From positions 89,012,160-89,076,159 of the forward strand of contig NC_088202.1 of assembly GCF_037126465.1 (NCBI RefSeq): a stretch of DNA of 64,000 nt. Direction: 5' to 3'. The stretch's first letter is position 1. Each line of letters begins with the position of its first letter. Below are positions 7,763-36,164 of this stretch, piece by piece. The stretch comes from Ornithodoros turicata (Eukaryota > Arthropoda > Arachnida > Ixodida > Argasidae). Both the position numbers and the translations under genes were made by a program. The notes beneath the pieces are model-generated. The model searched no databases. It was not told where the DNA came from and saw only the letters and a list, made by a program, of their open reading frames with translations.

Positions 7763-9339
7763 ATGGGTACCTACCTGCTAACAACATTCGCGTTGTTTGT
7801 GTTTTGTGCGTCCGTTTTATTCCATTGCAGCGCTGCAGTTCAAGACCAGTTAAATGTTCGGACGGAAAACGGACTTGTGGAAGGGCAAAGGATTACGTAC
7901 AACAGCAAAGAATTGGACGTATTCTACGGCATCCCATACGCTAAACCACCCGTCGGTGACCTCAGGTTTGAAAAACCACAGCCGCCAACATCGTGGACTG
8001 GAACTTTGAAAGCCACGCGTAAGCCAACTGCATGTCGACAAATCGATCTAGTTTTTGCCGAGAACATTACATTTAGTTATCAAAACTCATCCGAAGACTG
8101 TCTGTACCTGAACGTCATCAAGCCAGCGTGCTCAAATGGGACGACCTGCGAAGGACGTCTGCCTGTCATGGTTTTCATTCACGGCGGGGCGTTTCAGTGG
8201 GGAGATTCCAACTTAGTTTTCTACGATGGAAGGAACTTCGTGGCTACATCGGATGTTATATTTGTATCGTTCAACTACAGAGTTGGAGTGTTCGGCTTTT
8301 TGTCGACGGAAACTGAAGAACTTCCTGGCAATCTAGGACTCTGGGATCAAAACCTCGCACTGAAATGGGTGAAGAACAACATAGGTCACTTTGGGGGAGA
8401 CCCAGAGGAGATCACTCTATGCGGACAAAGTGCAGGAGGAATATCCGTCGGCATGCATGCCCTTTCGGCTCACAGCAAAGGTCTGTTCAAGAGGATTATC
8501 ATGCAGAGTGGTACAGCGCTCTCAGGAATACTGTCGCAATCGTACAAAAGTGTAGGCAAATTAGTGACCCTCGCAGGGTCGCTCGGCTGCTATCAAAATG
8601 ATAAGAGTTGGAACGAGCAGGTGTCAAACATTTTGCACTGCCTAAAATCTCTAGACGGAGGACAAATCATCGACGCATTGAAAACCCAAAGGTACGCAGC
8701 CCAGATATTTGTGCCTGTGACCGGCGACGATTTCCTCCCAGATGAGCCGCGCAAGATGGATCCTCTCGTGGTGAGATCTGCGCAAGTGTTTGCAGGGACC
8801 AACCCAAATGAAGCGGCTTTGATACTCAGAACCATTCGCTACATTCTGCCTGGGTTCCTGGAAGCCATAACTTGGGATTATCGAACCGGCGTTGCTCTCG
8901 CTGCCAGTACACTTGCTGGTCTGTCTCTAAGTGAGAGCAGAAAAATTGTTCACAGTTACTTCGGCGATCATGATGTCAAACACAGCAAAAAACAAGTGAT
9001 AGATACTATTGCGGAAATAATTGGTGACGTCGTTTTCCAGTGTCCTACACATTTCTATCTGCTGGCTGCTTCAGCACAAGGAATTGACTCATATAGGTAC
9101 ATGTTTGCGCACAGGTCCTCTTACAGCCTATGGCCCAAGTCAGTAGGTGTCACGCATGCAGACGAGTTGCCATACACATTGGGTTCTTTGCCCCATATAA
9201 AAGAAAGACTGCAGACACTATCCCCTGAGGAAGCCTACCTGGCGAAATTATTCGGTGTGTCCAATTTTACCTACACGGCGGACGAAGACCACTTCATGGG
9301 CGAGATTATTGGCATCTGGAAGTCCTTCATGCTTAATGG
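7763..9339 (+). CDS. EST-A exon 1 (catalytic domain)
   Basis: This exon carries codons 1-525 plus two bases of codon 526. It ends in G-G before the donor GTGAGT at 9340. If the donor is not used, the frame stops at once (GGG TGA). N-glycosylation sequons are visible at Asn101, 108, 125 and 501. The ATG is preceded directly by a good acceptor-like TTTGCAG-TC, so a leader intron may end at 7760. Confidence 0.9.
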
Positions 9340-12300
9340 GTGAGTACGAGGCCCGCTTTATTATGTATTCCCAGCACCGTGTTACAGTACCCAACACAAA
9401 TAACGACATACATGACCGCCGTGTTGAACGCGGAAAACATTACGCGGTATTTGCAGGCGTCATTAACAGCCGAGGCAAAATAATAATTATGTAGGTTAAT
9501 AACCATTCTTTCAGTGCGAGACTGCGAGTGTTTTGTTGTAGCAGGAATATTTGACGCATTCACCTGACTGGGACCGCATGGACACTTGCTTGTGTGTAAT
9601 AACCTTTATTTGGAACAACTCCTGATCCCTGCCACGATCGCACATGCACGTGTCTGCGTTGTTCTGTAAAGGTCTCAAAGCTAGCTAGTATAATACGTTG
9701 AACTAACCAGCGGTAGATGAGGTGAATTATCCACCCTAGTGGGTTTCTCAGCACTGTCCTCCTATTTGAAAATTTGGGGCTTCGGGCTAATTCATTATCC
9801 AAGCTAGAAAAACCCGAAAACACTCAAAAATATTCACTGAAAAACATAGGACAAAACTGCAACAATAGATCTAAATATGGAAAGGCACTTTTGAAAAGCC
9901 AAGGTTCCAGTATATCGAACCGCAATGACGCGTGGGTGATTAAATAGCTTGAATTTCTATACCGGTCGAAAACAAGATGACGTGATTGACCTTTTCGAGA
10001 TTTTTCTTATGCTATCACCTTGACGCAAAACAACGAGACAAACACAGCACCAGTGGGACGAAAATAAGACATAATCCTGCTGTTTTTTCGTCGCTGTCCG
10101 TTTCTCAAACTCTGTTTCGTCCCAGAGTGCTTAGCGTCGCTTTGACCTGTGGGAATTTACTAATACGAAAGAAACGGGTGTCCTCCAAACTGTTCCGATT
10201 TCTGCCCCACCGGTCCATTGTCCACGACGTGTCAAGGTCAGAGAAAGCGAAATGGGAATGATTATTCTTCGTTCCCCCGTTCAGCAAGCGCCCAGGATGC
10301 AATGCGTGCGCAAAGAGCACTGGGATTTTCTGAACTCGTGTATTCGGTGTTGCTATACGTTGGAACATGGTGACGTGACCCAGTTCCAAGAATACGGAGG
10401 AACTCGCGCGGAGTATGCTCTTTGAATGACATCGTTTCGTGTTCAAGACGCTCGCTAGAAGCAAAATAATTTCATATTTGGATATCGTGAGCTACGTTCT
10501 TTCACTGGGCATAATAATTGGAGAATGTTATCGCCCTGTTTTGTGCCCCTTTAGGAGCATAGCGGAATAGCGAAAGATAAATTTTGTGAAATTACGTAAA
10601 CGTGAATGCCGCTGCGAACGCGTCAACATGAGATGTGGGCTTCCAGTTATGAATTTGAGTCAATGAAAAGTTCACTTGTTTCTCGGGATGCCACCTAGAG
10701 CACATAAAACGTTATCTATGGCTAGTCAAGAGAACATAGTTTCACCGTTTCACCATATGTAGTCAAATGCCGTGATGCCAACAAGACATTCATGCCAAAT
10801 AATCCATAGAAGTGCCTTGCCTTGACAAATATGAAAAAATGAGAGACAGAGAGAGAGAGAGAGAAGGAAGTAATGTATTTTGTTTGTTTTTTTACTACAG
10901 GAATTGGTCTGCGTGATAATGGTGCGCGGAGCCGTAAACATGCAGCTACTACACACGATGTTCATTTTACGACACTAAATTGCCTAGAAAAAAAATATAT
11001 ATATATATATGTGACGACAAACCAGACTTGTGCGTAACGCGTTACTAGTAATTGCGTTACTTGTAATCAATTACCTTTATGAGTAATTTTTAGAGTAATC
11101 AGTTACTTTACTGTCAAAGTAATTTTTCGAGTAATCAATTACTTTTCTGAGTAATCGATTACTCAGTAATTGATTACTTTTCCGGTAGAGATTAACTCAT
11201 CTTTCAGATGTTCTGCCCCAAGTCAAGACCCTGGTGCAGTGAGCCTTTTTTGGACCGTTCTACTATACCAAGCGGAGGTCATTGTAATAAGGTTATGGAA
11301 TTTCAGGGTCTCTCTCCCTAATCTCTTACTACACCAGTGTGGTGGTACCATTGTGGTAGCCTTGGAGGTGTAGTGAGTCATGGGAAGATCCACGCAATGC
11401 TCTTCCACAATCGGGTCAACGTCTTCCCAGGCGATACATACAGTAGACGTACAGATCTACTTGTCCTGCGCGTTTTTTTGTTTTTCGTGTTATTTGAGTT
11501 GTTCCGCTGTTTAACGATTTCTTTCTTTCTCTCCCCCCCCCCCCTCTGAGGCACACAAAGACGGGTATAATTAGCGTGAATGCAGAGTAACGACCGGAGT
11601 AACGCGTTACTTTTCTACTCGTTACTCAATTACATTTGGAGTCCAGTAATTGGTAACGGTAATCAGTTACTTTTTCCGTACAAGTAACGGTAACGGTAAT
11701 CAATTACTTTTTTCGAGTAACGGGCACAAGTCTGCGACAAACAGAGAACGTTCGTTCCCGATGGAGTTGCTTCGAATTAGTGTCCATGCGCGCGCCCGCC
11801 CCGCGCCTCTTCTTTCATATGTCACACTCCCCCCCTCCAAGGTTAGCACACATGGGTGGATGGTATCGGCGCAGTTTACAAATGTTCACGATGTCCGTAG
11901 CTCTTCCGAGAGGCTGCACAGGACGGTCGATTTCGTAGTTCACCGGTGAAGCTTTGTGTATGATTGTGTATGGACCCTCCATGACTGGCGCAAGTTTCCC
12001 TCTGTTGGCCTGCCATGGCGTCTCGTAGAGAACATGATCACCAGGGCTGAACTCAGTGGGAATGAACCTCTTGTCATATAGCACCTTGTTTTTGTTGTGG
12101 TAGGCCAAGGAGTTCGAGACGGCTTTCCGTCGTGCCTCTTCTAGCGGCTCCAATGGCTGAGAAAGAGGTGGCTGGTATGAAGGAAATCCAAAAAGCAGGT
12201 AGCTCGGGGCGAACGCGGTGACCTCGTGTGGGGTGCGGTTGTACTCGTCCATGACCTCCGTCAACAATTCCGGACATGGCGTTCGCGGTCTCTCATTGAT

Positions 12301-15300: not shown

Positions 15301-18300
15301 ACGTCACAGAAAAACGTCATACGCGGTGTAGGGAACCCTTATCGCGGCTTGCCGCGAGTTTCCTTAGGACGGTTTTACTTTTCTCATTGGATTGCTCGAC
15401 GAGGCTGCTACTAGGAAACCGTATTTTTTTCTCATTAGGGGACTAATTATATTTAGGGGAATAATTATAATTAACCGATATATTTTAATCAACTTTTTAA
15501 TTATTGACTTTAGTGAGCACATCGCAATTGTGATATTAAAGCCTGATCTCCACATGATCCGCTCGAACCGTTTATGGAGCACAGAAGTAATCGCAGCGCC
15601 GCATTACAGACCTGACTATTTCACCTCCTCCGTCTGCTTCAAACCGCAAGTGATGGGCAAAAAGCGACAGTCACGTCGATATCGCCACCCCCACTTAACG
15701 TCACAGAACGACGTCATACCCGATTCAGGAAAGGTCTTACCGCGATGTGTCCCGCGATCTTGTTTTGTGTTTCTTTTTTGCTTGCAAGCACCTTTGAGCA
15801 TCACCACTATATATCAGCGCTTATCGTACCGGTAAAGGACAAAAGCCGTGTCCAGCAGGGTGAAAGGAGTGGTACGGCGAGCGACTGCGAACACAAGAAG
15901 GAAGAAAAGAAAGCCAAACGGAGAGACAAAAAGATTCTAAAACATATCGCGATAAAAGGTTTGACTGAATCGCATATGACGTTTTTCTGTGACGTTAAGT
16001 GAGGGCGGAGATATCGACGTCACTGTCGTTCTTTTGCTGATCACTTGCGGTTTGCAGCAGATAGCGAAGGCGAAATAGTTAGGCCCGGTTTCACCAACGC
16101 CGGTTAGCTTTGAACCGCGATCGAGGGTTTTTAAAACTCGCAGTGAACACTCAATTCTTTTTTACAAACGTTAGTTGGTGACGTGGTGAATGTTTCAGTG
16201 ACAATAACTCCCATTAGTGAAGCAGAGTTAAGCGTTACATTCAACTTAAGCGACCGTTGATTTTACTTCACATGCTAATCGGCGTTAGTGAAACCGTGCC
16301 AGGTCTGTAGAGCGCGCTACCATACTTTGGTGCTCCGTCAGTGGTTCGAGCGAATCATGTGGAGATCAGGCATTAATATCACAATTACAATGTGCTTCCT
16401 ATAGTTAATAATTAAAAAGTTGATCAAAATATATCAGTTAATTAGTCCCCTAATTCAGAAGAAAAAACGGTTTCTAAGTAGCAGCCTCGTCAAGCAATCC
16501 AATGAGAAAAGTAAAACCGCCCTAAGGCAACTCCCTTATTATGAAAAAAAAAAAAAAAAAATTGCAGCTAAAAAGAAACACCCTGTGTATACGATATAGG
16601 ATGTAACGCTCGCCTCGTGTCTGTTAGTATAGTGATGAAACATATCTTCTATTTTCGTAACTAGACATAAAATCTGAAAATCACAGCTTAGCTGCTTCTG
16701 TTTTCGTGAACGTCAAAAGGTTTCTAATTATCTTGTACGACTTAGGGGCGCCGGTGATCGTTTTACGGCATCAGCACTGAGACAACTGTGCTAATATGAA
16801 TATTTGTAGCAGATAAAGATATTTTGTGAAGGCACATTCTTCCAGTACAAACAATGCAAATAAAGAGATAGAATATTACTACTTTCCGCGCACGAACACG
16901 AAAAACACTTGATATGCACAAAGCGTCTCTGGAATGGATTCCCTTATGAGAGAAAGAGAGAGGAAATAAAGAACTTTGATCCCCTAGTTTTTATCATTTC
17001 GTACGTTTTCAACGATAAAAAACAAAGCAGCAGCGCTGCAGAAGCATCTCTCTCGTCTCGGTGACAAACGCGTATTGGGCTGCTGAGAGGAGACCGTGTT
17101 TCCATTTTTCGACGTCTCGTGACACCCCTGGCTTCCTGCCAATGGACAACTGACATTCTCCCTCCATCTATGCTGAGAAGAGACGATGCAACGCTCGCTT
17201 TCCGCATGCCACGAAACACCTCTCGTCAAGATGCTGATTAATTCATCGAGTGCGACTCGATGTGACTTTTACAGCTCAGTGGTGTTACCGCATGAGACAA
17301 GTTGACTCTCCCAGGTGCTGTCACTGCGGTGCTCTAGAAGATCTAGAGCACAATCTTCTTCATTGCCCACACTACCAACCTTCCCGGACTGCACTCTCCG
17401 GGTCTCTTAATCACTTGGACTCTCTCCCCCTCTCTCTCTCAAAATTGTTTGGTCCCTGGCGAAGTCCAGCCTACCAACGCGCTGCCCTCAAAGCTCTTTT
17501 TACTTTTTGAACACAATATGACTTCTAGCCTTATTGTGAAAGGGCTCATTATTTACTGCCCCACATCACCACCAGTAATGGGGTAAAGTCTCGCCCCTGG
17601 CGATGAAACTCCTCATTCATCATCTCAAAATACCGTTGTTGTCACTAAACACTGTGTAATTGGTCTTGTTCATCTTGCTTATCCTACCGTAGGCCTCTGT
17701 TGGAATTAAGGTATCGTAAGAAGAATAACGGAGGCCAGTCTAACCAATATATCTATTTTTCAGTAAGCCGACAGTGCCCCTATCATCACAACAGTGGCCG
17801 AAGTACTCAGTGAGAAACCCTGAGATGATCTACTTACGGCCCCAAAATTATACCAAGGGTACTGCACCTCGGAGGGACCGTTGCAAGCTGTGGAAAAAGT
17901 TTCTTCTGAAGCAGTAAGTAGACGACGGATTCACAAAAAGAAAAAGAATGCCTTGTTCGGGTAACTTATCTGAACGAGTCAAGAGCATGGCCTTGTACCC
18001 ATTATAAGTACTACTCACTTTCGGAAATACATAGGACAAAACAGGCACAACACAATCCTGCACTTGCAACTCAGTTTGCAACACGGAACTACTACCATAT
18101 TCACCCCAAGAACGGTGTTGCTTGTGCTTTACCCCCCGTGTTGAACTACTAAACGATAACATAGTGCTGGAAACGTTGCATATGTACTTTCTTCAGGTCA
18201 TACTACCGTTTGAACCAAGTTGTTTGCGCAGTCTAGTGTAATATGAGTATCTGATGCAGTTCTTCAGCACCCGAGGTGCCACTGTTAGGTTCGATGCGAC

Positions 18301-20192
18301 TACACACATGAGCGAATACTTATTTTAAAAGCTAAGCGAGTAGTTTTAAAACAAAATGGAATACGAATCGAATAGTTGTATAATCCGACCGGATACACAT
18401 GCAGCACATGTACGGATATAGGCATGAGTAGAGCGTCCACATATACGCGATATTTTCATAACGGTCGGAGTATGAAGTGGCGCTCACTTTGTTTTATACC
18501 ATCTCTTATGCCGTTTTCGGCATTACGTGTGGAGCTTCGGAATTACTTGTATATATTCGGCTTGGAAGAAACATCTATTCCATTCGAAATTCGAATATAA
18601 AATTCCGTATTCGATTCGCAAATTGAGTCGGATACATAATTATTCGCTTTAGCGTTCGAATAATTCGAATATTGGCACTGACCTAGAAAAGACCTAGAAA
18701 GACGAGGGTATACTAAAAGCGATAAAAACCCTCAGGCAGGAGGGACGAGAAAGGACAACACAGATGAAGGGCTTTCATCGCTTTTAGTGTGCTTCACAAA
18801 ACAGGCCAGTTTTTAACCTTATTTAAGAAGGTAAACCTGTTTCGGTTGTTATGTGTGTTTTCATTGTTGCTTGTGTCTAGGAAACTCAGTTGGAAGTTGA
18901 GCATTGTGTCGTACCTGTTGTCCGCGTCATTTTGCTTACTACTTGAAAAGTGTTTCTAATGAATCATCACCAACCATCGCTTGTGGGTACCTTGGTTCGT
19001 ATTAATGTACTTGGCCTATTGCCACCGCAATTACATTTAGTCATTCTAAGATGCGAGAGATTTCTGTGATGGCGAGTTTTACCAGTCATTTTTGGTATAG
19101 GGCATTTGGCATATTTCATGTGTAGGTGCTTTCGATATTTAATGACCAATATAATATTTTATAGGGTTCTAAATGTTTAAAAAAAATGGTTATTCTTTGC
19201 TGTCCTATACTGGCTACAGTGGTTTGCACATATGAATGCAATGTTTTGGATGGTTCGTTACGTCCTAGCACACCTGAGTTACCCACGGTAGTCAGTGGTA
19301 AACGCTGCTAGTTTTCTGTCTACCGTCTATACTGCGAAGTCAACGGTTAGTTTTCTACCACTTAAACAACGAGATTTGGCCGAGGCAGACCAACAATTAG
19401 GGACGACACAGACAAGTAAGCCTCAAACGCCCAGAAATTAACGAAATGCAAACAACTCAGGGAAAAGAGGTGCTGACGCCAGGAATCGAACCTGGGTCTT
19501 CTGATTTCCGGTCAGATATGCTAAGATAGTTGTTTGCTTTTCTACCACTTGTTGTCTAGAGTCCAGAACAGGCTCTTTAGTTTCAATCGCCCACTAAGTT
19601 ATATCTGCACTCGCGCGTTGTCACCCCTCACTCGTTTATTGCAAAGAGGTAACAGAAACACATGTGAAATGGCATAAGAATTAATCCAAATTGGTTCACT
19701 CACCGTGAAGAGGATTCCGTAATAATCACCCTTACTCGTTCACTTGCACGCACAAGTGATTTGGTGTACACGGCACCTCGTTGTGGTAGTCGAAATTTCC
19801 ATTTTTTTTTCTTCCCAAACCTGCCTAACCTGAGATTCCCCAGGTGCCGCCCCCTCCACTCCCCAGGAAAGCCTTGCGGTCGTGCGTTCATGCGTAGTTG
19901 TCCGGCCGTGTAGAGTATTTCCTCCTTGAAAGCAAGCATAATAAATTTAACAAGATCGAATTTACCCTCGTTTTTTGACTGACTGTTTTCTCGTCCTAGG
20001 AACGTCGAAGGTGGCCGCTCAGGATCGAAATCTTCGACATCTCGAAAGACGAAGAAGCCAACGCAGCTGCAGAAGGCTTACAAGCCATTGTACAGCACAA
20101 TTGCGTCGAAGGCTTCTCAGTATCTCTCGTCTTCCTTCTTGTTAATGTGTTTCTTCTTGAACGCGACACTTCTGAAGCTCTGTATAACATAA
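7763..20192 (+). CDS. EST-A: secreted, probably GPI-anchored type-B carboxylesterase / cholinesterase-like protein (3 exons)
   Basis: Joining 7763-9339, 17764-17913 and 20000-20192 gives 1920 bases, a 639-residue protein. Residues 1 to about 25 form a signal peptide. The alpha/beta-hydrolase domain follows, with oxyanion loop H-G-G-A-F (140-144), nucleophile elbow G-Q-S-A-G-G with Ser223, Glu350 (N-P-N-E) and His465 (T-H-A-D-E). Cysteines 91/113, 276/293 and 427/exon 2 match the three cholinesterase disulfides. The position of the choline-binding Trp, ten residues before Cys113, is Thr, so true acetylcholinesterase activity is unlikely. Both introns are phase 2. Exon 3 supplies a Lys/Ser/Thr-rich stalk and a hydrophobic end suggesting a GPI anchor. 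Intron 1 (8.4 kb) is filled with transposons. Substrate and tissue cannot be told from sequence. Confidence 0.88.
9340..11014. other. EST-A intron 1, left part; no gene
   Basis: There is a (GA)n microsatellite at about 10842-10863 and an (AT)n run at 10994-11010 just before the LTR/MITE boundary. No coding or RNA gene is recognised. Confidence 0.4.
11010..11826 (-). repeat. Probable 3' LTR (or LTR remnant) of gypsy element 1, split by the hAT MITE
   Basis: Reading the minus strand, a purine-rich tract (GGAGGGGGGGAGTG) follows the end of the integrase frame. Then comes a segment starting TGTGACATATG and, once the MITE is removed, ending TCGTCACA just before the (AT)n run. Ends of the form TG...CA with a short inverted repeat, directly after a polypurine tract, are what an LTR shows. 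The reconstructed length, under 100 bp, is short for an LTR, so internal deletion is possible. No 5' LTR partner is visible for comparison. Confidence 0.45.
11023..11734. mobile_element. 712-bp hAT-type MITE with GTAAC-rich subterminal repeats
   Basis: The left end reads CAGACTTGTGC and the right end GCACAAGTCTG, an 11-bp perfect terminal inverted repeat. The same 8 bases, CGACAAAC, flank it at 11015-11022 and 11735-11742. Inside each end are arrays built on GTAAC/GTTAC and GTAATCAATTAC, the kind of subterminal repeat that binds hAT transposases. No transposase frame is present. It has inserted into the terminal sequence of the neighbouring gypsy element, so it is the younger of the two. Confidence 0.88.
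11815..14930 (-). pseudogene. Ty3/gypsy retrotransposon 1: protease, RT, RNase H, integrase with frameshifts
   Basis: In minus-strand order: a zinc-knuckle-like CX2CX9HX4C near 14900; an aspartic protease D-T-G-A at about 14740; reverse transcriptase with L-D-I-T-S-G-Y and the catalytic F-D-D-I near 13770; RNase H with C-D-A-S-S and T-D-H-S-A-L; the H-H-C-C zinc domain of integrase near 12760; and core residues in M-D-T-I, S-D-R-G-T-G-F and N-E-R-A-N. At least three frameshifts (about 14600, 14080 and 13660) break the polyprotein. The gag side is cut off at an AT-rich junction with the foldback element at 14944. There is no envelope gene. It lies antisense in EST-A intron 1. Confidence 0.85.
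14944..16587. mobile_element. 1.6-kb foldback element with ACAGGGTG ends and repeated internal arms
   Basis: The left end ACAGGGTGTTACTTCTTAGC is mirrored at the right end (about 16563-16587) with two mismatches over about 25 bp. Just inside, a block beginning CCTTAGGACGGTTTTA occurs twice in direct orientation (about 14996 and 15362) and once inverted (to about 16535). Each copy carries the same sub-blocks: TTAGGGGACTAATTA, TTATTGACTTTAGTGAGC and CCGCAAGTG. The inverted copy is interrupted by a second small element (16082-16300). No transposase frame is seen, and the right end is flanked by a poly(A) run. Confidence 0.7.
16082..16300. mobile_element. About 219-bp MITE nested in the foldback element
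   Basis: GGCCCGGTTTCACCAACGCC at the left and its near inverted complement at the right (GGCACGGTTTCACTAACGCC on the other strand) give terminal repeats of about 26 bp with three mismatches. Comparison with the two uninterrupted copies of the host block shows where the insertion starts and ends. The target duplication is ambiguous (one to three bases), so I do not assign a superfamily. Confidence 0.65.
16588..17054. other. EST-A intron 1; no gene recognised
   Basis: This is A/T-rich intronic sequence with no coding or repeat end I can support. Confidence 0.4.
17055..17645 (+). pseudogene. LINE 3' fragment: RNase H end and cysteine/histidine motif
   Basis: This + strand sequence matches, with many substitutions, the 3' part of the LINE on the minus strand at 41.6-42.6 kb. 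The frame from 17250 has F-T-A-Q-W-C-Y-R, then C-C-H-C-G and H-N-L-L-H-C-P-H-Y, the CCHC-like motif downstream of RNase H in I/R1-type LINEs, and ends after L-F-G-P-W. The upstream part (17055-17235) is frame-broken. A 3' UTR and GTTGTTG-type tail end near 17645. It is 5'-truncated and dead. Confidence 0.7.
17764..17913 (+). CDS. EST-A exon 2
   Basis: A TTTTTCAG acceptor is followed by 150 bases (1 + 49 codons + 2), then the donor GTAAGT. It encodes the end of the esterase fold: W-P-K-Y, M-I-Y-L-R-P-Q-N-Y-T-K-G and R-C-K-L-W-K-K-F. These equal the conserved cholinesterase C-terminal block, with the Cys that pairs with Cys427. EST-B and EST-C exons of identical length and phase support it. Intron retention here would end the protein at once (CAG TAA). 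Confidence 0.9.
17914..19368. other. EST-A intron 2, left part; no gene
   Basis: It contains an ATTCGAA-rich low-complexity stretch (about 18300-18670). An imperfect inverted pair, CTAAAAGCGAT near 18712 and ATCGCTTTTAG near 18778, suggests another small foldback relic. Confidence 0.4.
19369..19552 (-). repeat. tRNA-derived SINE, family B, Ser-like head
   Basis: On the minus strand a 5-bp anticodon stem, TCTGA/TCAGA, encloses loop CCGGAAA (anticodon GGA, Ser-like). A perfect T arm, CCAGG-TTCGATT-CCTGG, follows. Downstream is a body containing TTAATTTCTGGGCG and TTGAGGCTTACTTG, related to the body of the SINEs at 59.1-59.5 kb. The 5' (acceptor/D-arm) half is degenerate, so this is a SINE, not a tRNA gene. 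Confidence 0.65.
20000..20192 (+). CDS. EST-A exon 3 (stalk and GPI-type tail)
   Basis: TCGTCCTAG acceptor; 193 bases ending in TAA. It encodes a Ser/Lys/Thr-rich stalk (G-S-K-S-S-T-S-R-K-T-K-K-P-T), then small residues S-K-A-S and a strongly hydrophobic end (S-S-S-F-L-L-M-C-F-F-L-N-A-T-L-L) with no charged cytoplasmic tail. That is the layout of a GPI-attachment signal. The length is identical to EST-B exon 3 although the sequences have diverged. Confidence 0.82.
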
Positions 20193-21990: not shown

Positions 21991-22005
21991 CACGAGACAT
22001 TCGTA

Positions 22006-22014
22006 TCCAGTCGC
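22006..22014 (+). promoter_or_regulatory. Initiator-like motif upstream of EST-B
   Basis: ATCCAGTCGCC contains the CAGTCG core also found upstream of EST-A and EST-C, here 62 bases before the ATG. A TTTTTCCTGTTAG acceptor-like site ends at 22066, four bases before the start codon, so a small leader intron is possible here too. No convincing TATA box is seen. Confidence 0.3.
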
Positions 22015-22070
22015 CCTCTCGTTAGCAGTGCCGTCGCATGATCTAACGTGCGATTTTTCCTGTTAGTGTA

Positions 22071-23647: not shown

Positions 23648-25949
23648 GTAAGTCAGTGCAGCTCGATTTCCAGTTTGATTGCATAACGTGAGATAGTTCT
23701 GACCGTTTCTGGTACACGTCATTGCAGTTTTGCTGTGATCAATTTCGAATGCGAAATCATAAGCTTGATACTTGTCGGCCTAACTGTTGTGCCTCACTTC
23801 ATGTCGGCCTCCTAATCACTTGAAGGTAACTATTAAATCATCACTCACTCACGATACCAGAAAGGAAAACTTGGACAATCTGTATCCCTGCAGAGAAGCG
23901 TCGTTCTGTGCCTGAACGAGATTGCACGAATAAAAAATAACATCGTGTTTAGTAAGAACCATTATTCACTTGCGTCTTTCGCTCTACTGCTTGAATACTT
24001 TTGCTTCTCTGTCTGCAAATCTGAGAACTATTATATAGACCGTTCTAACAGTACTGACGACGGTAACTTTGGCTTGGCCCCATTTTCCTCTTGTCAATGA
24101 AGGCACACTCGACAAATTAAATTCGTCTTCTGCGGAGAAGGCAATTACCGTATTTTCACGCGTATTAGCCGCACCGCAGATAAGCCGCAGGACTCGTTTT
24201 AGATACATTTTGAAAATGTTTTTGCAGATAAGCCGCACTCGCAGATAAGCCGCGGGTAATACGACGTGACTGCTTTGTGCGCTAAACCAGTGATGCACAT
24301 ACAAAATCAACAGAGACGCTCAACGCTCGTCAGCGCCGTGCTCCCTGCCAGCTGCCCTGTTCCCGTACTTGTCCGCGAAGTCGACGACTTTTAGTTTGTA
24401 GCCGCTGTCGTGGCTGTGCCTCAGCGTTGGAGCCATGCCTCACCTCTAACTGCCGTGCCCGTGTCCACGAATGCTGCTGCTCTCGTCAAATGAGAACTGA
24501 CGCTTAGCTGACCACGTTTTATCCCGATGTCAGGTGTATTGAGCCCTTCCTGTGGGTCTGCCGACAAAGGAGACCGTGGGGAAGGCCACAAACCCTGTCC
24601 ACATTCCAGTGTTGGCATGATGTATAACAAAGGAGGTCAGTTCTAGTGATCTACTAAGATCGGATTGTGCCCTTGTTGCGTGTTCTTCGTGGATTGACGG
24701 GTTAGTCCACTCGAATGTGGAGTGGACCCGCCCCTGTTCGGTATTGTTCGTGCACTGGCAGGGCGGTCCTGTTCCGAAAAACATGAGGCACTGTCGGCCC
24801 TTTCGTTTAACCCGGGGCATGGGGAAAGTACCAGGGAAAAATAGTCAATAGATAAGCCGCACCCACGGATAAGCCGCAGACCGTCCGCGAAAAAAATAAA
24901 TCGCGCATAAGCCGCGGCTAATACGCGTGAAAATATGGTAATACACGCTGCAGTTTGCGTGCGTCTTTTTTCTCACGTTCACCCGAAGTAAGTGAAATGA
25001 TACAATTACTCGTTGATTTTCAGGACACCAACAATACCGTCATCGGACGATGCATGGCCAGAGTACACTGGAAGCACGCCGAACTTGGTATACCTGCGCC
25101 CTCAAAACTATACCAAAGGTCCAGCCCCCAAGCACCACAGATGCATGATCTGGAAGAAGTACTTAACGAGGGAGTACGTATGATTACGATGCTCGTGCTT
25201 GTCATAAACTGGGCTACAAGTTGACGTGGGACTTGATACTGCCACTATGCAGTTGTGCTGGCTGTAGCCAAAACGCTCTACAGATAGTTCACAGCTTGCA
25301 GTTTGCAAGCGAACGGCTCTGCACGCATGGGTTCTGTCGGGCGATGAATTACAAACAGGCAAATCAAGAAATCTTATCCAGTTTATCACTGTTCGCTTTG
25401 TTATATCCGCTATGCTCATTTCCTTGTATAGCTATACCGCATCTACGCTCGGAAAAAGAACGCCCACAAGAGATTTCCTTGTGTGCTTGTAGTGGTCGAC
25501 ATACCACGTTCACATTCTGATATGAGTACCAAAGTGAAAGGATGGTTAAATAGCAAGCGAGCTGGTGATGACAATCCATGATAACTAACTTCGTGACGAA
25601 GGACAAGTTGTGTATACAAGAAGGTCGAGTGTGTATGTCCCTTGTTGTCCCTCGTCTCGGATGAGTACGACAACACGCAACGTCTTTAACTATGCTCACG
25701 TCCAGTTACGTTCACGTCTACATTCATAACTAATTCCTTTTCTGTTTCCCTTGCAGTAATGTACACAGCGAGGTATCCACACCAAAGCTCGGGAAAGTGA
25801 AGCCGAGCAAGAGCCCCAAACAGAAGACGAAACGTGTGAATGCAATTGACGATAACATAGCGTCAAAGGCTGAAATAGTCCTTCCTTCCACAATCGTATT
25901 TCTTAGCATTTCTGTTAGCTCCATTGTTTTGAGGTCGTTTGCGGCGTAG
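22071..25949 (+). CDS. EST-B: secreted, probably GPI-anchored type-B carboxylesterase / cholinesterase-like protein (3 exons)
   Basis: Exons 22071-23647, 25024-25173 and 25757-25949 join to 1920 bases, 639 residues, the same exon lengths as EST-A. The signal peptide probably ends near residue 24 (C-V-C-A). The oxyanion loop H-G-G is at 140-142. The catalytic triad is Ser223 (G-Q-S-A-G-G), Glu350 (T-L-N-E) and His465 (T-H-T-D-D). Disulfide cysteines sit at 91/113, 276/293 and 427/exon 2. As in EST-A, no Trp occupies the choline-binding position. Sequence around 95-110 and 344-370 is closer to EST-C than to EST-A, suggesting B and C arose by the later duplication. Intron 1 (1.4 kb) holds one inverted-repeat element; intron 2 is 583 bp. 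Confidence 0.9.
24144..24942. mobile_element. About 800-bp inverted-repeat element with AGCCGC-rich ends
   Basis: ATTACCGTATTTTCACGCG at the left is mirrored at the right with one mismatch, continuing through GTATTAGCCGC. Both ends carry repeated ATAAGCCGC units (left at about 24179, 24226 and 24244; right at about 24853, 24870 and 24907). If the flanking TA dinucleotides are the duplication, it is a Tc1/mariner-pogo-type element. The middle (24260-24840) shows no intact transposase. It lies wholly inside EST-B intron 1. Confidence 0.7.
25024..25173 (+). CDS. EST-B exon 2
   Basis: Acceptor GATTTTCAG; 150 bases; donor GTACGT, a less usual form. It encodes W-P-E-Y, L-V-Y-L-R-P-Q-N-Y-T-K-G, then R-C-M-I-W-K-K-Y-L-T-R with the conserved Cys. 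Retaining the next intron would add only Y-V before a TGA stop. Confidence 0.9.
25757..25949 (+). CDS. EST-B exon 3 (stalk and GPI-type tail)
   Basis: Acceptor TTTCCCTTGCAG; 193 bases ending in TAG. A basic stalk (K-V-K-P-S-K-S-P-K-Q-K-T-K-R) is followed by I-A-S-K-A and a hydrophobic end (I-V-L-P-S-T-I-V-F-L-S-I-S-V-S-S-I-V-L), then R-S-F-A-A. This fits a GPI signal; a tail-anchored membrane helix is the alternative. Confidence 0.82.
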
Positions 25950-27550: not shown

Positions 27551-27556
27551 AGCGCG

Positions 27557-27566
27557 GTTCAGTCGA
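27557..27566 (+). promoter_or_regulatory. Initiator-like motif upstream of EST-C
   Basis: GGTTCAGTCGAGC repeats the motif at EST-A (GTTCAGTCGGC), here about 72 bases before the ATG. TATAAAAA at 27474 is the only TATA-like box nearby. Shared position and core in three paralogues suggest a shared promoter start, although recent duplication alone could explain it. Confidence 0.35.
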
Positions 27567-27632
27567 GCGACCCATTGCCGTCTTGAAAGGCGAGTTGTTT
27601 CGTGGTGTGACGTGAATTTTCCTGCCTGAATG

Positions 27633-29209
27633 ATGGGCACGAATATTTTAGCAAGAATAGCCACATTCCTGCTCTGTGCGTGCGCGTTGTGTTGTTTAGG
27701 TGTTGGTGTCAGAGAGCAGCCAGTTGTCCGAACGAAAACGGGACAAGTGGCCGGACAAAGGATTACCTACAATAATACGGATTTGGACGTTTTCTACGGA
27801 ATTCCATACGCGCGACCTCCTCTGGGCGATTTGCGTTTCTTGAAACCACAACCTCCATTATCATGGGAAGGAACCCTAAACGCTACACGTAAGCCAACCG
27901 CATGCCGTCAAATTGAACTTGTGTTTTCCAAGAACGCTACTTTCAGCTACGTCAATGCATCTGAAAACTGTCTCTACGTTAATGTGGTCAAACCATCGTG
28001 TTCTAACTCGGCGGATTGCCTGGAACCTCTCCCTGTCATGGTGTACATTCACGGAGGGGCATTTCAGTGGGGGGACTCAAGTTTGGTGTTCTTTGATGGC
28101 AGAAACTTCGTAGCCACAACCGGTATTATACTGGTCACATTCAACTACAGGGTAGGATTGTTCGGGTTCTTGTCCACAGAAACTCCTGAGCTTCCTGGCA
28201 ACATGGGTCTCTGGGATCAGAACCTTGCACTAAAATGGGTGAAGGACAATATCATTCACTTCGGAGGCAACCCGGAAGAAATAACTCTTTGTGGGCAAAG
28301 TGCAGGAGCGATATCCGTGGGAATGCACGCCCTATCTCCTCGTAGCAAAGGATTGTTCAAGAAAATTATTATGCAAAGTGGAACACCCCTGTCAACAATA
28401 ATGACGCACTCATACAGAGGTATTGGCAGACTGCTAAGTATCGCAGGACTACTAGGGTGCTACGACAAAGACAAGAGTTGGACGGAGCAAATATCCAGCA
28501 TGTTGGATTGCTTAAGAACGAAAGAGGCAGGAGACATCATTGCCACTTTGAGAACGCAAGAATACACGCACCAAATATACGTACCGGTCGTCGGAGACGA
28601 TTTTCTTCCGGAGGAACCACGGGAGATGGACCCTTTCATCATTAACGCAAATGCGGTGTTTTCTGGGACTACTCTCAATGAAGCGACCGTATTAGTGGAT
28701 AACCTGCGTTATATCTCACCCGGACTGTTCGAGGCTCTGTCGGGTGACTATAGGATAGGCGTCACACTAGCGATAACGGTACTAGTTGGTCTCACGCTTA
28801 GTGAGAGTAAAAGGATTACCTACAGCTATTACGGAGGCTACGATGTAGAACACAGCCAGCAAGAGGTTATAGACATTCTGGCTGAGATAATTGGGGATGT
28901 TGTGTTCCAGTGCCCAACGCATTACTACCTGGTAGCGGCTTCGAAGAAAGGAATCGATTCGTACAGATACATGTTTGCTCATCGGTCGTCCTACAGCCTG
29001 TGGCCTGAGTGGATGGGTGTGACACATGCGGACGACATACCGTACACATTCGGTTCTTTGCCACACATCAAAGACGCAATCCAGAATCCAACACCGAATA
29101 CGGTATCTTTGAAAGGAGTGTTCGATATTGGTAATTTTTCCTACTCTACGACTGAAGAGCACTTCATGAACGAGATACTAAATATATGGAAATCCTTCAT
29201 AGTGAATGG
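27633..29209 (+). CDS. EST-C exon 1 (catalytic domain)
   Basis: It is 1577 bases from the second ATG, ends in phase 2 and is followed by donor GTGAGT. Read-through meets TGA after one codon. In place of S-A-G-G, EST-C has S-A-G-A at the nucleophile elbow, as EST-D does. Confidence 0.9.
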
Positions 29210-32200: not shown

Positions 32201-35200
32201 GCGGAATAACTGGGAAACACGAGGCCGACGCTGCCGCTGCACATCAACAACGGCCTTCTATGCCCATTATACTCTCGAGAGGAGACAGAAGATCCCTCCT
32301 CAGGCATTTCTCCGATTCCTGGTCTACCTTACAGTGGGACCACGGCATTCCAACTAGGTCCTCTTTGGGAAGTGTAGATCCAATGCTGTCATACCGGCTG
32401 CCTGCAAAGCTTCCTCGTCCTCTGAAGTCGCTCATCCACAGGCTCCGTCTGAATGTGGCCTTCACTCCGTTCTGTCGCTACCAGCTAGGCTGTGAGGCTA
32501 GCCCTATGTGCAACGAGTGTGGTGTACTTACCAACGTAGAACATATACTCCTCCGCTGCGGACCTATATCAACGAGAGGCGTAGTCACAGCTTGCCACCC
32601 TTGGCCGCCGCCCCTTCAACTTGTCGACCATCCTCGGCCCTTGGGACACCGCAGCCCACTCTGGGCGGCCTTAGGTCATTTAGTTGGCTTTTTTGAGGCG
32701 ACAGGCCTAAAGGACTCATTATGACCCCAGCAGCGCTCGCGGACATTCCCACCATCACCACCATGTTCAGCATCGCCATCGCCGCTCCGATCATTCCCGT
32801 CATCTCTCATCGTCATCACTCATCATTGTCACCACTCATATTAGGCTCCCTAGCTATGGCGTAGCGTTCCACTCCTAGAGTGGAAAACATCCCCACTTCA
32901 TCATCAGAATATATATGTTGTTGTTGTTGTTGATGTCGCAACACTGACAGCATGATCGGACGAAAGCGAGAGCCGCCAAACGATTATGTAGAGGAATGGA
33001 TTGTAGAGAATGGATGCTACCTGGATTATTCTACTGCTGTGATGTACGAACTACTCCACCTTCAGACTTTTATGTAGAAGACCCGACCTGTTGTCGCTTT
33101 CCGTTCACCATAATTCATCTTCTCATATTAACCTCTGTGGAGTGGGGTATAGGGTCATTTGGCTACCACGGGGAAATAAACCATGTCATCATCACTTCTC
33201 CTTCATTTATTGTTGTTGTTGTTGTACGAGAATAATAAACCCAAGGCGTTCATGTCGCCAGCTGATCGCGGCATAGATGTCGTTGTCTGTAAATTCTGCA
33301 GCATGACAGTGATCGTTTTCGTGTGGCACCACGGGCGTGAGTGATGAAAAGAGTAACTAGAAGAATAAGATAGCGCGGTGTCACGTTCACTCCACCCCCA
33401 CCCCCATTTTTGGGCCTGGGCTCCTGCATAGCTTGGTTCCAGCTGCTTGGGATTTCGCGAGGTTTCCTCTTCTTTTCTTTTTTTTTTTTTGTGTGTGTGT
33501 TTTCATGCATATTTTCCGAGATTGCTAATATGGAGCAGAGCCGTATATCGAAGAGGGAGTCTGGCCATTGGGAGGAATCCCAAAAAGATGCTCGACCTGT
33601 CAATCACAGTTCCGGGCCTCTGATTGGTTTACTTTTTACCACGGGGGTCGCCCCGTGGTAAAAAGTAAACCCAGCCCAGCCAGTAAACGTGCGCATAGCG
33701 TCTCATCATTTTTGTGAATATGTCGTTGTTTCAGTGCTATTTTCTTTTTCTCCGGACGTCGGATATTAACAGAGGTATGATAAATAAAAGACGAAAAGCT
33801 ACCAATCCTCGGAACATGTCATGAACTTCGAAAAACATCCTCCGAAAATATTCCAAAAAATAAACTCTGGAAACTCGGAACCCTACAAGTTATGCTTTAT
33901 TAGACGATGGTTGCCAGTGAACTAATCGAATGCGAATGCAATAGTGAATAACATATAATTGGACTTCAATAACATTTCCACACATTGACGCTTTGTGGAA
34001 GAGAACTGGGAAGCACCAAAAACGATCAGCTCAATATGTTTATGTTTGCGGAGCCAGCATCACGCACACACACTCACATACATAAAGAGACCATGATTAG
34101 ATGGGGCTGATGCCGGCCAGGCTGCCCATGGTGGGCCCCAGTGCCATTTGTAGATAGTGAGAGATGAGCCCCATGGAGATTAGGATTCAAGTTATCCAGG
34201 CCAGCAAAGTTATTGCGCGGATACTGGAAGTGAGGGATTTACGTAGGATTTTCATCTTGGGAAGTGTCGGAATTCCGCACGCGGGGTGACACAGTATCCG
34301 CTGCCTTTTCGTGCTTTTCTGTCTTCTGGGAGGTACTTTAGAGGGGAGGGGTGTTACGGCACGGGGAAGGGAGTGCTGGTGAGATTTATTTTTCGGTGTT
34401 TCGTATTTCGATATTTAGATTCAGTTTGACCCCGGTGCAGCCTTGTGTGTTTCTTGTACCGCATGTTTCATGCCCTGTAAGAGTAAGACGCCGATTTTCT
34501 TAGCCAATACGACATGTATCAGAAGTGTATTTGCAGTGAAGCAGGTGAGACCATCCACTTCGCAGAAGTTTGAAAACGAAACTACATTATTAAATATCCT
34601 TATTAACCAGCTTATTTGCGTTTGCATGTATGCACTCTTTCATGTGGAGTGAGTAGCCTATTGAGAAATATTGAGCTCCTAACGTGATAGCAGCAGTACT
34701 AGTTATTCTACCTATCTGGCCCTTTGCATGTTATTGTGTTCACCTGTTCGACCGAACTCCCAGCAACATTAGTTGTTATTTATATTCGATAGCAACAAGA
34801 GAAACTGGGGCCATTATTGGTTATTTCGAGCATACACTGACTTTTGAATAAAGCCATGCACACGGCAATATAAAGGTGCACCCATTGGTATTTTTACTGG
34901 TCCAATATTGTCATTATCATAACCATGGATTGCGCTTTCAGGAAACCTACAATACCTTTATCAAGTGACAAGTGGCCCGAGTATTCCCTGAGCAATCCCA
35001 GCCTAGTCTACTTGCAGCCCACAAACTACTCCAAAGGACCTGCTCCTAGAAAAGATAGGTGCACGCTGTGGAAGAAGTATCTACTGAGGGAGTAAGTACA
35101 CAATTGAACATGCAATAAGGGGATAAGTCGACTTATCCCATTTTTACTATTTTTGTTGCAATGACATCTACATACCAGTATGCACCTGCTAATGAAAATT

Positions 35201-36164
35201 TTATGACGTTATTGCGATTTGTTGGCCTGATACTGCATGGTAAAAAACGGGAAATGCATGTGTCAATGCATGTGTCAAATGCATATGTCAATGGGACGGA
35301 CAATCAGATCAGGCTCCTTTTCTCAGTTTGGGATTTTTCGACTCATCCCCTTATTGCATACAGAGGTTCAATTGCATAATCACAATGAGCAGCCGTAGGT
35401 GAGATGAATTGCAGAGGAGAAAGAGTTGGTATTGAAATACTTCACCTGGACCTTATCCTCCTTCCTGATTACCTGATCGGTGACAAAGGCGGTTGGGAAA
35501 ACTAGCTTGGGAATTTTCCTTTTGTATACCAGGCGCAATTCGTAGCCGGTGGCTTGTGACAATGCTTGAATTTTTAACTCAAGTAACCCGGCCAACCCGG
35601 TATATCCAGCCAAAATGCAACGTAATACCATTACTCATTAGTCCCCACTTCTAAAACATATACATTGAAAACACCATGAGAGATCTCCGCAGTTAGGCTT
35701 GAAGTTGATGTGCAAGGTGGCTCATAAGCTAAACGTCAGGGGAATTGCTTAAAATACAGTAACGTCTGAGCTGGTTGGCATACTTCCATGTTGAACGACA
35801 ACAAGTAGACGGGATGGACGGCAACTGTGTTAGTTCATCGCCCATTCCGTCTGCTTGTTGTCGCTTCAACATGGAACTGATTAAAATGTTGGTGTTAAGT
35901 CTCTTTTCTTGTTAGTTCATGCAGTAGCCAACATTGCCTTTATTTTTCCTCTGCAGGCAAATACAAGACGGTCCCTCTACAGAGAGGCCATCACCGCCGC
36001 ACAAAACGAAACCAACAAGGAAGCCAAAGCCGGCACGAAGGCCCGGGAAGCCTCTTGATAACACAGTAGCTTCAAATGCGTCTACATCGTTTGCGTCTAT
36101 TATTACGTTTCTTGCCAGTTTCATTATCTCTGTCCGAGAAATATCCAGCTCATATAGCCTATAA
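27633..36164 (+). CDS. EST-C: secreted type-B carboxylesterase / cholinesterase-like protein with C-terminal tail exon (3 exons)
   Basis: Exons 27633-29209, 34942-35091 and 35957-36164 join to 1935 bases, 644 residues. Two ATGs stand in tandem at 27630 and 27633. I chose the second because it has A at -3 and G at +4 and gives the same 526-residue numbering as EST-A and EST-B. The catalytic residues are Ser223 (G-Q-S-A-G-A), Glu350 (T-L-N-E) and His465 (T-H-A-D-D), with oxyanion loop H-G-G at 140-142. The signal peptide is Cys-rich (residues 1-24). The cysteine pattern matches the paralogues, and the choline-site Trp is absent. Intron 1 is 5.7 kb and contains a LINE with a nested palindrome. 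Confidence 0.9.
30135..30238. repeat. 104-bp foldback hairpin in EST-C intron 1
   Basis: CATCCATAAT at 30135 is mirrored by ATTATGGATG ending 30238. The inner arms GACTGAGGTACACACAAACG and their exact complement are 20 bp long and enclose about 20 nt. It is probably a palindromic MITE relic; CGAGCTGGTGATGAC just upstream also occurs at about 25555. Confidence 0.6.
30285..30430. repeat. Dispersed repeat, copy 1
   Basis: The segment shares blocks in the same order with 33755-33885: TCGGATATTAAC, GACGAAAAGCT, AAAATAAACTCTG and GAACCCTAC. The two copies are in direct orientation in EST-C intron 1 and bracket the LINE. The repeat class is unknown. Confidence 0.5.
31027..32935 (+). pseudogene. LINE (I/R1-like) relic: RT C-terminal part, RNase H and 3' tail
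   Basis: The 31027-31476 frame shows R-F-L-G-V-T-L-S-W-N-L-S-W-K-R-H-I and a thumb region ending R-A-L-L-A-R-S-L-R-V-C-L-G-V-P, typical of the RT C-terminus of non-LTR elements. After frameshifts, 31969-32724 encodes RNase H (Y-T-D-S-K-A, W-V-P-G-H-C-G-I, H-E-A-D-A-A) and the downstream C-x2-C...H...C motif. A (GTT)n tail ends near 32935. A 191-bp palindrome interrupts RNase H. Endonuclease and most of RT are missing: a 5'-truncated dead copy in EST-C intron 1. Confidence 0.75.
31805..31995. mobile_element. 191-bp palindromic insertion inside the LINE RNase H
   Basis: GTGAGACTGAAGGAGATGCA at 31805 is mirrored at 31976-31995. The arms run 39 bp with one mismatch, and an inner inverted pair (CCTGTAGCCCGCGGCGCG versus its complement) follows. 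LINE coding sense stops at A-E-L-Y-A-I-V before it and resumes after it, so it is a later insertion. The target duplication is not clear. Confidence 0.6.
33120..33238 (+). repeat. Second LINE 3' tail
   Basis: TGTGGAGTGGGGTATAGGGT, a short 3' UTR-like stretch, and a (GTT)n tail at about 33212-33227 resemble the ends of the LINEs at 17.6, 32.9 and 41.6 kb. No coding part remains. Confidence 0.4.
33626..33671. repeat. Perfect 21-bp hairpin with 4-nt loop
   Basis: GGTTTACTTTTTACCACGGGG (33626-33646), loop GTCG, then the exact complement to 33671. A perfect arm this long with so short a loop would form a very stable stem in RNA or cruciform in DNA. It is in EST-C intron 1, so it would be transcribed with the gene. 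It is probably a transposon palindrome. Confidence 0.75.
33755..33885. repeat. Dispersed repeat, copy 2
   Basis: This is the direct-orientation partner of 30285-30430, with the same ordered blocks and about the same length. Confidence 0.5.
34942..35091 (+). CDS. EST-C exon 2
   Basis: Acceptor GCGCTTTCAG; 150 bases; donor GTAAGT. It encodes W-P-E-Y, L-V-Y-L-Q-P-T-N-Y-S-K-G and R-C-T-L-W-K-K-Y-L-L-R with the conserved Cys. Intron retention gives GAG TAA, an immediate stop. Confidence 0.9.
35784..35876. repeat. 93-bp foldback hairpin in EST-C intron 2
   Basis: TTCCATGTTGAACGACAACA at the left is mirrored by the right end (ending TTCAACATGGAA at 35876) over about 35 bp, with one single-base indel and two mismatches. 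It is likely a small MITE. Confidence 0.6.
35957..36164 (+). CDS. EST-C exon 3 (Pro/Lys-rich stalk and hydrophobic tail)
   Basis: Acceptor TTTCCTCTGCAG; 208 bases ending in TAA, 15 longer than in EST-A and EST-B. The stalk is Pro/Lys/Arg-rich (P-S-P-P-H-K-T-K-P-T-R-K-P-K-P). The hydrophobic core (F-A-S-I-I-T-F-L-A-S-F-I-I-S-V) is shorter and is followed by R-E-I-S-S-S-Y-S-L, so it is a weaker GPI candidate than the other two. An ATTAAA at about 36433 may be the poly(A) signal. Confidence 0.8.

What the first reader, a model, noticed from the sequence alone, without database searches (positions are those of the whole stretch)
7763..36164. Three collinear tandem esterase genes, each completed by two small downstream exons
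Seen directly: EST-A, B and C have first exons of 1577, 1577 and 1577 bases, second exons of 150, 150 and 150, and third exons of 193, 193 and 208. All junctions are phase 2 with GT-AG borders, and catalytic residues fall at identical numbers (223, 350, 465). Single-exon predictions would stop at residue 526 and miss the last disulfide Cys and the tail. The exact agreement of three independent joins makes the models strong.
Basis: partly seen in the sequence, partly recalled or inferred. Interest (0 to 1): 0.8.

Follow-up and report, generated by a model that had tools for sequence, protein, structure and literature searches.

The report
Tick esterase cluster with modular exons
Three neighbouring tick genes for cholinesterase-like esterases, probably tethered to the cell surface, really do have one big catalytic exon plus two small ones, and a nearby stretch of the same cluster appears to let five different catalytic exons share a single set of end exons.

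Summary
In the soft tick Ornithodoros turicata, EST-A, B and C each join a 1577-base first exon to a 150-base and a 193/193/208-base exon; all joins are GT-AG and phase 2. Spliced A and B equal public predicted proteins letter for letter; C lacks only one start Met. All keep the Ser-Glu-His triad but lack the choline-site Trp84 and Glu199, so they are probably not acetylcholinesterases, despite their public names. Exon 2 supplies the last disulfide Cys; exon 3 encodes a stalk and a hydrophobic tail resembling a GPI signal. An inverted fourth gene, D, stops in exon 2.

They belong to a cluster of at least 16 esterase matches in 525 kb. About 71 kb beyond the window, five open catalytic first exons accompany one detectable exon 2 in 90 kb, and two public isoforms join different first exons to the same exons 2 and 3. 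Proteins of other ticks, some from unnamed contigs, show different heads on near-identical exon 2. This UGT1-like layout is the novel part; RNA proof is missing.

The parts
7763..9339 (+). EST-A exon 1: start, signal-peptide-like N-terminus and most of the esterase domain (S223, E350, H465)
   Evidence: PF00135 E 2.1e-121
17764..17913 (+). EST-A exon 2: end of the catalytic fold, last disulfide Cys566
20000..20192 (+). EST-A exon 3: Lys/Ser/Thr-rich stalk and hydrophobic tail, stop
   Evidence: spliced A identical to P0004
22071..23647 (+). EST-B exon 1
25024..25173 (+). EST-B exon 2
25757..25949 (+). EST-B exon 3
   Evidence: spliced B identical to P0003
27633..29209 (+). EST-C exon 1 (public model starts one codon earlier, at 27630)
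34942..35091 (+). EST-C exon 2; most of it predicted at pLDDT 90 or more in the model of C
35957..36164 (+). EST-C exon 3: low-confidence stalk, then a C-terminal helix of moderate confidence
   Evidence: C = P0001 minus one Met
50934..52651 (-). Fourth esterase, D, exon 1 (own model), inverted; phase-2 intron in a Gly codon at the same aligned place
   Evidence: PF00135 E 1.6e-137 for the ORF
47169..47316 (-). D exon 2 with stop: supplies the last Cys, no exon 3, no hydrophobic tail
   Evidence: ends like hard-tick relatives P0122, P0124, P0125

Best explanation
EST-A, B and C are three open, anciently duplicated genes for secretory-pathway carboxyl/cholinesterases that have probably lost cholinesterase specificity. 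Shown: one large exon holds the triad and five of the six conserved cholinesterase-type Cys; a 50-residue exon closes the fold and brings the sixth Cys; a last exon gives a basic, Pro/Ser/Thr-rich stalk and a hydrophobic C-terminus. Inferred: the tail is a GPI signal, so the enzymes sit on a stalk at the cell surface and hydrolyse esters other than acetylcholine. The first join lies at Torpedo-numbered Gly480, and all 16 first exons of this cluster that I read end in GG|GT in a Gly codon, phase 2. Because that phase is constant, any first exon can join any of the mapped second exons in frame. In the window the arrangement is one-to-one. In the neighbouring array at C2:89.147-89.194 Mb, five first exons most likely share one exon 2 and exon 3, by alternative promoters and cis-splicing, as in vertebrate UGT1; promoters and splicing there are inferred.
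For: Joins and residues. Identity with public predictions. Domain; solved cholinesterases are the best matches by sequence and by fold. Trp84, Asp72, Glu199 absent in A-D, present in P0218, the likely true O. turicata AChE; 0 of 114 counted relatives show Trp84, 109 of 114 have Ser-Glu-His. Exon 2 is part of the confident fold. 23 of 35 'lgn' relatives run through exon 2 into a long tail. Cluster. Sharing: P0115 and P0236 map to first exons about 25 kb apart and to the same exons 2 and 3; five first exons and one second exon in 89142000-89201999, next candidate E 0.71, none in the 30 kb below; all five open, with Ser, Glu or Asp, His, five of six Cys and a GG|GT donor.
Against: No RNA reads could be mapped; the public isoforms are predictions. 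No GPI predictor was run, and C's hydrophobic stretch is followed by a polar end. Loss of Trp84 and Glu199 lowers but does not exclude hydrolysis of choline esters. In the array three of the five first exons have Asp for the triad Glu, and one (89152345) has Phe in place of an oxyanion-hole Gly, so not all five need be active. A second exon too divergent for the profile could be missed; exon 3 was sought only by tblastn in 89142000-89201999 and not in the 30 kb below. More than 200 kb of the 525-kb cluster was not read.
Confidence: 0.82

Rival explanations
1. They are genuine acetylcholinesterases, as the public names say, duplicated to raise dosage.
For: Public names 'acetylcholinesterase-like'; intact triad; cholinesterase fold.
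Against: Trp84, Asp72, Glu199 and Trp233 all absent from A-C and the segment around Trp84 shortened, whereas P0218 keeps them; the tree sets P0218 with hard-tick P0213 and P0208, far from A-C.
Confidence: 0.08
2. The real products are the single-exon ORFs of 526-527 residues; the downstream exons are chance.
For: The ORFs end cleanly; P0255 is a public model of that kind, and 28 of 114 relatives show no last Cys.
Against: The stop is the phase-2 donor read through (GG|GTRA). It would leave a conserved Cys (427) without its partner; exon 2 is conserved at protein level, and 53 of 114 relatives carry the last Cys and at least 30 further residues.
Confidence: 0.02
3. The shared tail of the neighbouring array is an artefact: the predicted isoforms are chimeric models, or the extra first exons are dying duplicates that lost their own exon 2.
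For: Isoforms X1 and X3 are predictions; one first exon, P0255, is annotated as a separate single-exon protein; one first exon has a changed oxyanion hole; two of the five had no public protein among those I retrieved.
Against: All five are open for over 500 codons at 34-46% identity to each other, with Ser, Glu/Asp, His and donor. Elsewhere, P0040/P0051 and P0042/P0059 have exon 2 at 100% and 90% with first exons at 44-46%; gene conversion of 3' exons could also give that, and P0040, P0042 and P0059 come from unnamed contigs.
Confidence: 0.25
4. The three joins agree only because A-C are recent copies of one another.
For: They are tandem neighbours and form one group.
Against: pS 0.71-0.84 in each exon and intron flanks at 22-31% identity.
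Confidence: 0.03

Closest known systems
Cholinesterases with an H-type (GPI) C-terminus, e.g. Torpedo AChE-H and medaka atypical BChE (PMC3045457, passages read)
   Same: Alpha/beta hydrolase fold, triad, Cys pattern, splice sites after the catalytic core, hydrophobic C-terminal peptide
   Different: Trp84, Asp72 and Glu199 lost; a long basic stalk before the tail; an extra Cys pair (123/129) seen in 107 and 104 of 114 counted relatives
Acari-specific carboxyl/cholinesterase clades J' and J'' (PMC4965064, passages read)
   Same: Lineage expansion in mites near AChE, most with a triad, some in tandem arrays
   Different: No sequence known to me as J' or J'' was in my tree, so membership is open; the passages seen do not describe stalk, tail or shared exons
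75 carboxylesterase/cholinesterase-like genes of Ixodes scapularis (PMC4748124, passages read)
   Same: Family size of the same order: 84 matches here, many of them fragments
   Different: The passages give counts, not exon structure
UGT1 and other multiple-variable-first-exon clusters (PMC1885805, abstract and outline read)
   Same: Tandem variable first exons with one constant 3' exon set, in an enzyme family linked to chemical defence
   Different: Here nearly the whole catalytic domain, triad included, is in the variable exon; the constant exons give the last disulfide and the tail. A-C themselves are one-to-one

Membership tests
Carboxyl/cholinesterase family (PF00135) | Profile match above the curated cut-off over most of the domain | tested here: met
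   Exon-1 ORFs of A, B, C, D at 403-460 bits against a cut-off of 27
Carboxyl/cholinesterase family (PF00135) | Ser-Glu-His triad and GxSxG elbow | tested here: met
   S223, E350, H465, GQSAG in A-C
Acetylcholinesterase | Choline-binding Trp84 and Glu199 | tested here: not met
   Absent / Gln in A-D; present in P0218
Acetylcholinesterase | Peripheral-site residues Asp72 and Tyr121 | tested here: not met
   Leu and Gln in A-C
Acetylcholinesterase | Hydrolysis of acetylcholine | not testable with these tools
   Needs the enzyme
Cholinesterase gene architecture | Introns near Torpedo residues 480 and 535 | tested here: inconclusive
   A's joins fall at 480 and 531 in the alignment; the vertebrate positions are recalled, not from a call. 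PMC3045457 quotes Combes 2000 that C-terminal AChE splice sites are conserved in insects, nematodes and vertebrates; but exon number varies in arthropod AChE genes (2 and 6 in Tribolium; 8 and 5 in salmon louse)
GPI-anchored (H-type) enzymes | C-terminal hydrophobic signal after an omega site | tested here: inconclusive
   Best 14-residue hydropathy near the C-terminus 2.0-2.3 in A-C, -1.0 in D; 51 of 53 long-tailed relatives at or above 1.2; no predictor, no PI-PLC assay
Acari clades J'/J'' | Clustering with known J' or J'' sequences | not tested
   Mite rows P0128, P0129, P0150, P0154 were in the tree, but their clade is not known to me
Multiple-variable-first-exon cluster (UGT1 type): window genes | Fewer downstream exon sets than first exons | tested here: not met
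   Four first and four second exons in the window
Multiple-variable-first-exon cluster (UGT1 type): neighbouring array | Several open first exons, one downstream exon set | tested here: met
   Five first exons, one second exon in 89112000-89201999; exon 3 sought less thoroughly
Multiple-variable-first-exon cluster (UGT1 type): neighbouring array | Transcripts joining different first exons to the same downstream exons | tested here: inconclusive
   Two public predicted isoforms do; RNA not available
Multiple-variable-first-exon cluster (UGT1 type): neighbouring array | A promoter before each first exon | not tested
   Not examined there

The most novel reading that the evidence does not exclude
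Tick esterase clusters use the phase-2 cholinesterase junction at Gly480 as a swap point: several first exons, each holding nearly a whole catalytic domain and presumably its own promoter, splice to one constant exon set that completes the fold and adds a membrane tail, so that one locus yields a set of surface esterases of different specificity. The layout is shared by soft and hard ticks. A-C would be the dispersed, one-to-one state of the same system.
Probability: 0.68. Interest if true: 0.7.

Novelty: new variant of a known kind. Interest (0 to 1): 0.52.

Why it matters
Cholinesterase-like genes of ticks are often discussed for detoxification and saliva biology, yet many listed relatives are named acetylcholinesterase without the choline site, and a good part of the public models lack the end exons (28 of 114 show no last Cys, 33 more have little after it; some of these may be real). 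Correct models change which proteins are called secreted or anchored. If first exons share constant exons, gene counts for the family need revision, a knock-down aimed at the shared exons would hit several enzymes at once, and a UGT1-like layout would exist in an arthropod enzyme family unrelated to UGTs.

Tried and rejected
Considered and dropped: single-exon proteins; recent duplication as the reason for equal lengths; true acetylcholinesterase; further second exons inside the window (only the four of A-D reach E below 1). Whether A-C also share exons with one another cannot be told without RNA. A paper search for the BCHE exon map gave nothing usable, so vertebrate intron positions remain recalled. 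Two paper searches for variable-first-exon esterases (15 of 18 papers listed; 12 of 58 listed) showed no such esterase among the listed ones; the library is open-access only. Rows dropped: from the alignment, 11 proteins outside 380-720 aa (6 of them from the 120 listed, leaving 114) and the raw D frame. One search used 86 proteins with a recognisable exon 2 starting at residue 450-640. Trees are quick searches with SH-aLRT support only, on 79 and 43 chosen rows.
Full report
CHECK OF THE OBSERVATION. The catalytic Ser, Glu and His are residues 223, 350 and 465 in A, B and C, and the last conserved Cys, 566, lies in exon 2. The open frames end at 526, 526 and 527 codons, because a phase-2 donor GG|GTRA reads as a stop if the intron is kept. 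C begins ATGATG; the equality 1577 needs the second ATG. A and B, spliced, are identical to public proteins P0004 and P0003, and C is P0001 without its first Met. These are predictions for Ornithodoros turicata, so they confirm the reading, not the transcript. The window lies at G000:C2:89012160-89076159, on a contig of 150,342,175 bases, the contig length given for those three proteins.

MORE THAN CHANCE. With A's exon 2 as query, those of C and B are found in the 64-kb window at E 4e-24 and 2e-19; with A's exon 3, at 6e-5 and 3e-3. Exon 3 alone would be weak. DNA beside exon 2 is 22-31% identical between copies without gaps; exon 2 itself is 58-66% identical, with the third codon position changing most (27-31 of 51-63 differences). 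Synonymous differences are near saturation (pS 0.71-0.84) against pN 0.17-0.30 in exons 1 and 2 and 0.45-0.49 in exon 3. The duplications are old and the exons were kept as coding sequence, exon 3 most loosely.

WHAT THE PROTEINS ARE. All four window frames are PF00135; the best solved relatives of C are cholinesterases by sequence, and human and mouse cholinesterases lead the fold search. In an alignment numbered like Torpedo AChE, A-D keep the six cholinesterase Cys and the triad but lack Trp84, Asp72, Glu199 (Gln) and Trp233; P0218, another O. turicata protein, keeps all four and is the likely true AChE. Of 114 relatives counted from the 120 listed, none shows Trp84, 109 have Ser-Glu-His, and 91 have Gln before the Ser. 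The public records of A-C are among the 114. The characterised Amblyomma cholinesterase AaChE1 (PMC10178864, passages) has triad spacing 125/113; six rows of the alignment share it, among them P0208 and P0213, and A-C (127/115) do not. The name acetylcholinesterase is therefore misleading for A-C; that they do not hydrolyse acetylcholine is an inference.

EXONS 2 AND 3. In the predicted structure of C (mean pLDDT 87.9) most of exon 2 scores 90 or more; exon 3 is a low-confidence stretch followed by a C-terminal helix of moderate confidence. Best 14-residue hydropathy near the C-terminus is 2.0-2.3 in A-C and -1.0 in D; 51 of 53 long-tailed relatives reach 1.2. A GPI signal is the natural reading, untested. 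Of the 114 relatives, 53 have the last Cys and at least 30 further residues, 33 have the Cys but less after it, 28 show no Cys in that column. Some short ones come from 'lgn' contigs and may be truly tailless or cut. Of 35 rows with source tag 'lgn' (longest contigs 1.8-3.3 kb), 23 run through exon 2 into a long tail. I take these contigs to be assembled transcripts; that is an inference from their length.

GENE D. A fourth esterase lies on the other strand: exon 1 52651-50934, exon 2 47316-47169, with the stop in exon 2. Its first intron interrupts the aligned Gly codon in the same phase. Its length (621) and last residues match hard-tick proteins P0122, P0124 and P0125 (620-621 aa), and it groups with them and with mite proteins P0128 and P0129. 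No O. turicata record equal to D was among the 120 listed.

TREE. In a quick tree of 79 rows (SH-aLRT only) A, B, C, P0007, P0008 and P0006 form one group (100); P0218 groups with hard-tick P0213 and P0208 (99), far from them.

THE CLUSTER. The genome search gave 84 PF00135 matches (84 of 206 candidates scored; many are fragments); 16 lie in C2:88669247-89194244, about 525 kb, and 12 in C3:96445653-96560529. I read 254 kb of the C2 cluster outside the window; more than 200 kb remain unread. With profiles built from relatives, the stretches scanned (window included) hold 16 first exons and 10 second exons at E below 1e-4, the weakest at 9.3e-5. In the window the ratio is 4:4. All 16 first exons end in GG|GT within a Gly codon. 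P0007 and P0008 map to their own exon sets at 88979723-88989440 and 88926142-88945688.

THE NEIGHBOURING ARRAY. In 89142000-89201999 five first exons lie on the minus strand with one exon 2 (89148097-89147948, E 1.6e-19; next candidate E 0.71). The same profile finds second exons as divergent as D's (3e-18) and others at 1e-12 to 9e-5, so its reach is fair but not unlimited. One exon 3 (89147500-89147303) was found by tblastn and by mapping. The 30 kb below, 89112000-89141999, hold no further first or second exon; exon 3 was not sought there. Public proteins P0115 (isoform X3) and P0236 (isoform X1) use first exons 89194322-89192760 and 89169417-89167825 and the same exons 2 and 3; their first exons are 35% identical. 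P0255 is a third first exon, annotated as a 527-aa protein that ends at the donor. For the other two no public protein was among those retrieved. All five are open, 34-46% identical to one another, with Ser, Glu or Asp, and His, five of the six conserved Cys, and a donor after GG. Three have Asp for Glu, and 89152345 has Phe in place of an oxyanion-hole Gly, so activity may differ. The sixth Cys must come from an exon 2. Distances to the shared exon 2 are 2.7 to 44.7 kb. A similar case may lie at 88875233-88876768: an open first exon with no second exon up to 88925001 (best candidate E 0.12), the next known one being P0008's; P0008 is itself called isoform X2. The matching isoform was not seen.

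OTHER TICKS. Among 86 family proteins, pairs with first exons below 60% identical have median exon-2 identity 32-42% by bin (95th percentile 46-56%). Of 3473 pairs below 55%, 12 reach 85% in exon 2. They include P0115/P0236, P0040/P0051 (exon 2 100%) and P0042/P0059 (90%, tails 96%), with first exons at 44-46% in the last two. P0051 is Dermacentor silvarum; P0040, P0042 and P0059 are from unnamed 'lgn' contigs, placed with hard ticks by the tree. By eye, P0051's tail looks like P0040's in another frame. Other pairs among the 12 join different species, so they show a slowly changing exon 2, not sharing within one genome. The soft-tick exon 2 of P0115 is 88% identical to that of Ixodes scapularis P0220, their first exons 46.5%. 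In the tree, P0237 and P0257, two Ixodes hexagonus proteins on contigs of equal length (156,299,317), group with different first exons of the array, so its two main head types are probably older than the soft/hard tick split. Gene conversion of 3' exons is an alternative for the cross-species pairs, not for the shared coordinates.

HOW IT LIKELY WORKS. Shown: positions, phases, open frames, shared coordinates of two public isoforms. Inferred: a promoter before each first exon, cis-splicing to the next available exon 2, GPI addition, and ester hydrolysis outside cholinergic signalling. In A-C each first exon has its own nearby pair. The constant phase at Gly480 makes both arrangements possible.

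KNOWN AND NEW. [quoted passage not shown] vertebrate introns near 480 and 535 are recalled, A's joins are at 480 and 531. Against a universal layout: Tribolium Ace genes have 2 and 6 exons (PMC3281121, passages), salmon louse genes 8 and 5 (PMC4418574, passages). Expansion of such genes in Acari is published (PMC4965064 and PMC4748124, passages). Variable first exons with constant 3' exons are known from UGT1 and others (PMC1885805, abstract and outline). Two searches listed no report of it in cholinesterase-like genes. A-C are new members of a known kind; the neighbouring array, if borne out by RNA, is a new variant.

Noticed in passing
47169-52651 (-): Gene D: a two-exon esterase without tail, with close hard-tick relatives of the same length; no equal O. 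turicata record was among the 120 listed, so it may be missing from the public annotation.
   Followed up: partly
G000:C2:89147303-89194322 (-): Five open catalytic first exons with one detectable exon 2; two public isoforms share exons 2 and 3.
   Followed up: yes
G000:C2:88875233-88876768 (+), L011: Open first exon with donor but no exon 2 found up to 88925001; may use the exons of P0008.
   Followed up: partly
G000:C3:96445653-96560529: A second cluster of 12 esterase matches within 115 kb; exon structure not examined.
   Followed up: no
A, B, C residues 123 and 129: An extra Cys pair, present in 107 and 104 of 114 counted relatives, outside the usual cholinesterase Cys; perhaps a family-specific disulfide.
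   Followed up: partly
A, B, C residue 220: A Cys three residues before the catalytic Ser223; 9 of 114 counted relatives have Cys there.
   Followed up: no
upstream of 7763, 22071, 27633: A CAGTC (initiator-like) word 64, 63 and 73 bases before the start codons of A, B and C.
   Followed up: no
11815-14260 (-), 60761-61864 (-), 61876-63963 (-): Retrotransposon-type frames (reverse transcriptase, RNase H, integrase matches); the first stretch lies inside A's intron 1.
   Followed up: no
15036-16533: Overlapping inverted repeats with arms of 70-132 bases inside A's intron 1.
   Followed up: no
59019-59093 (-) and 59365-59439 (+): Two oppositely oriented tRNA-Thr (GGT) predictions, also called tRNA by Rfam; a third ARAGORN call at 47792-47875 has no Rfam match.
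   Followed up: no
P0002, P0005, P0044, P0046, P0112: Public tick models of 752-1069 aa that match the esterase first exons more than once, probably fused neighbouring genes.
   Followed up: partly
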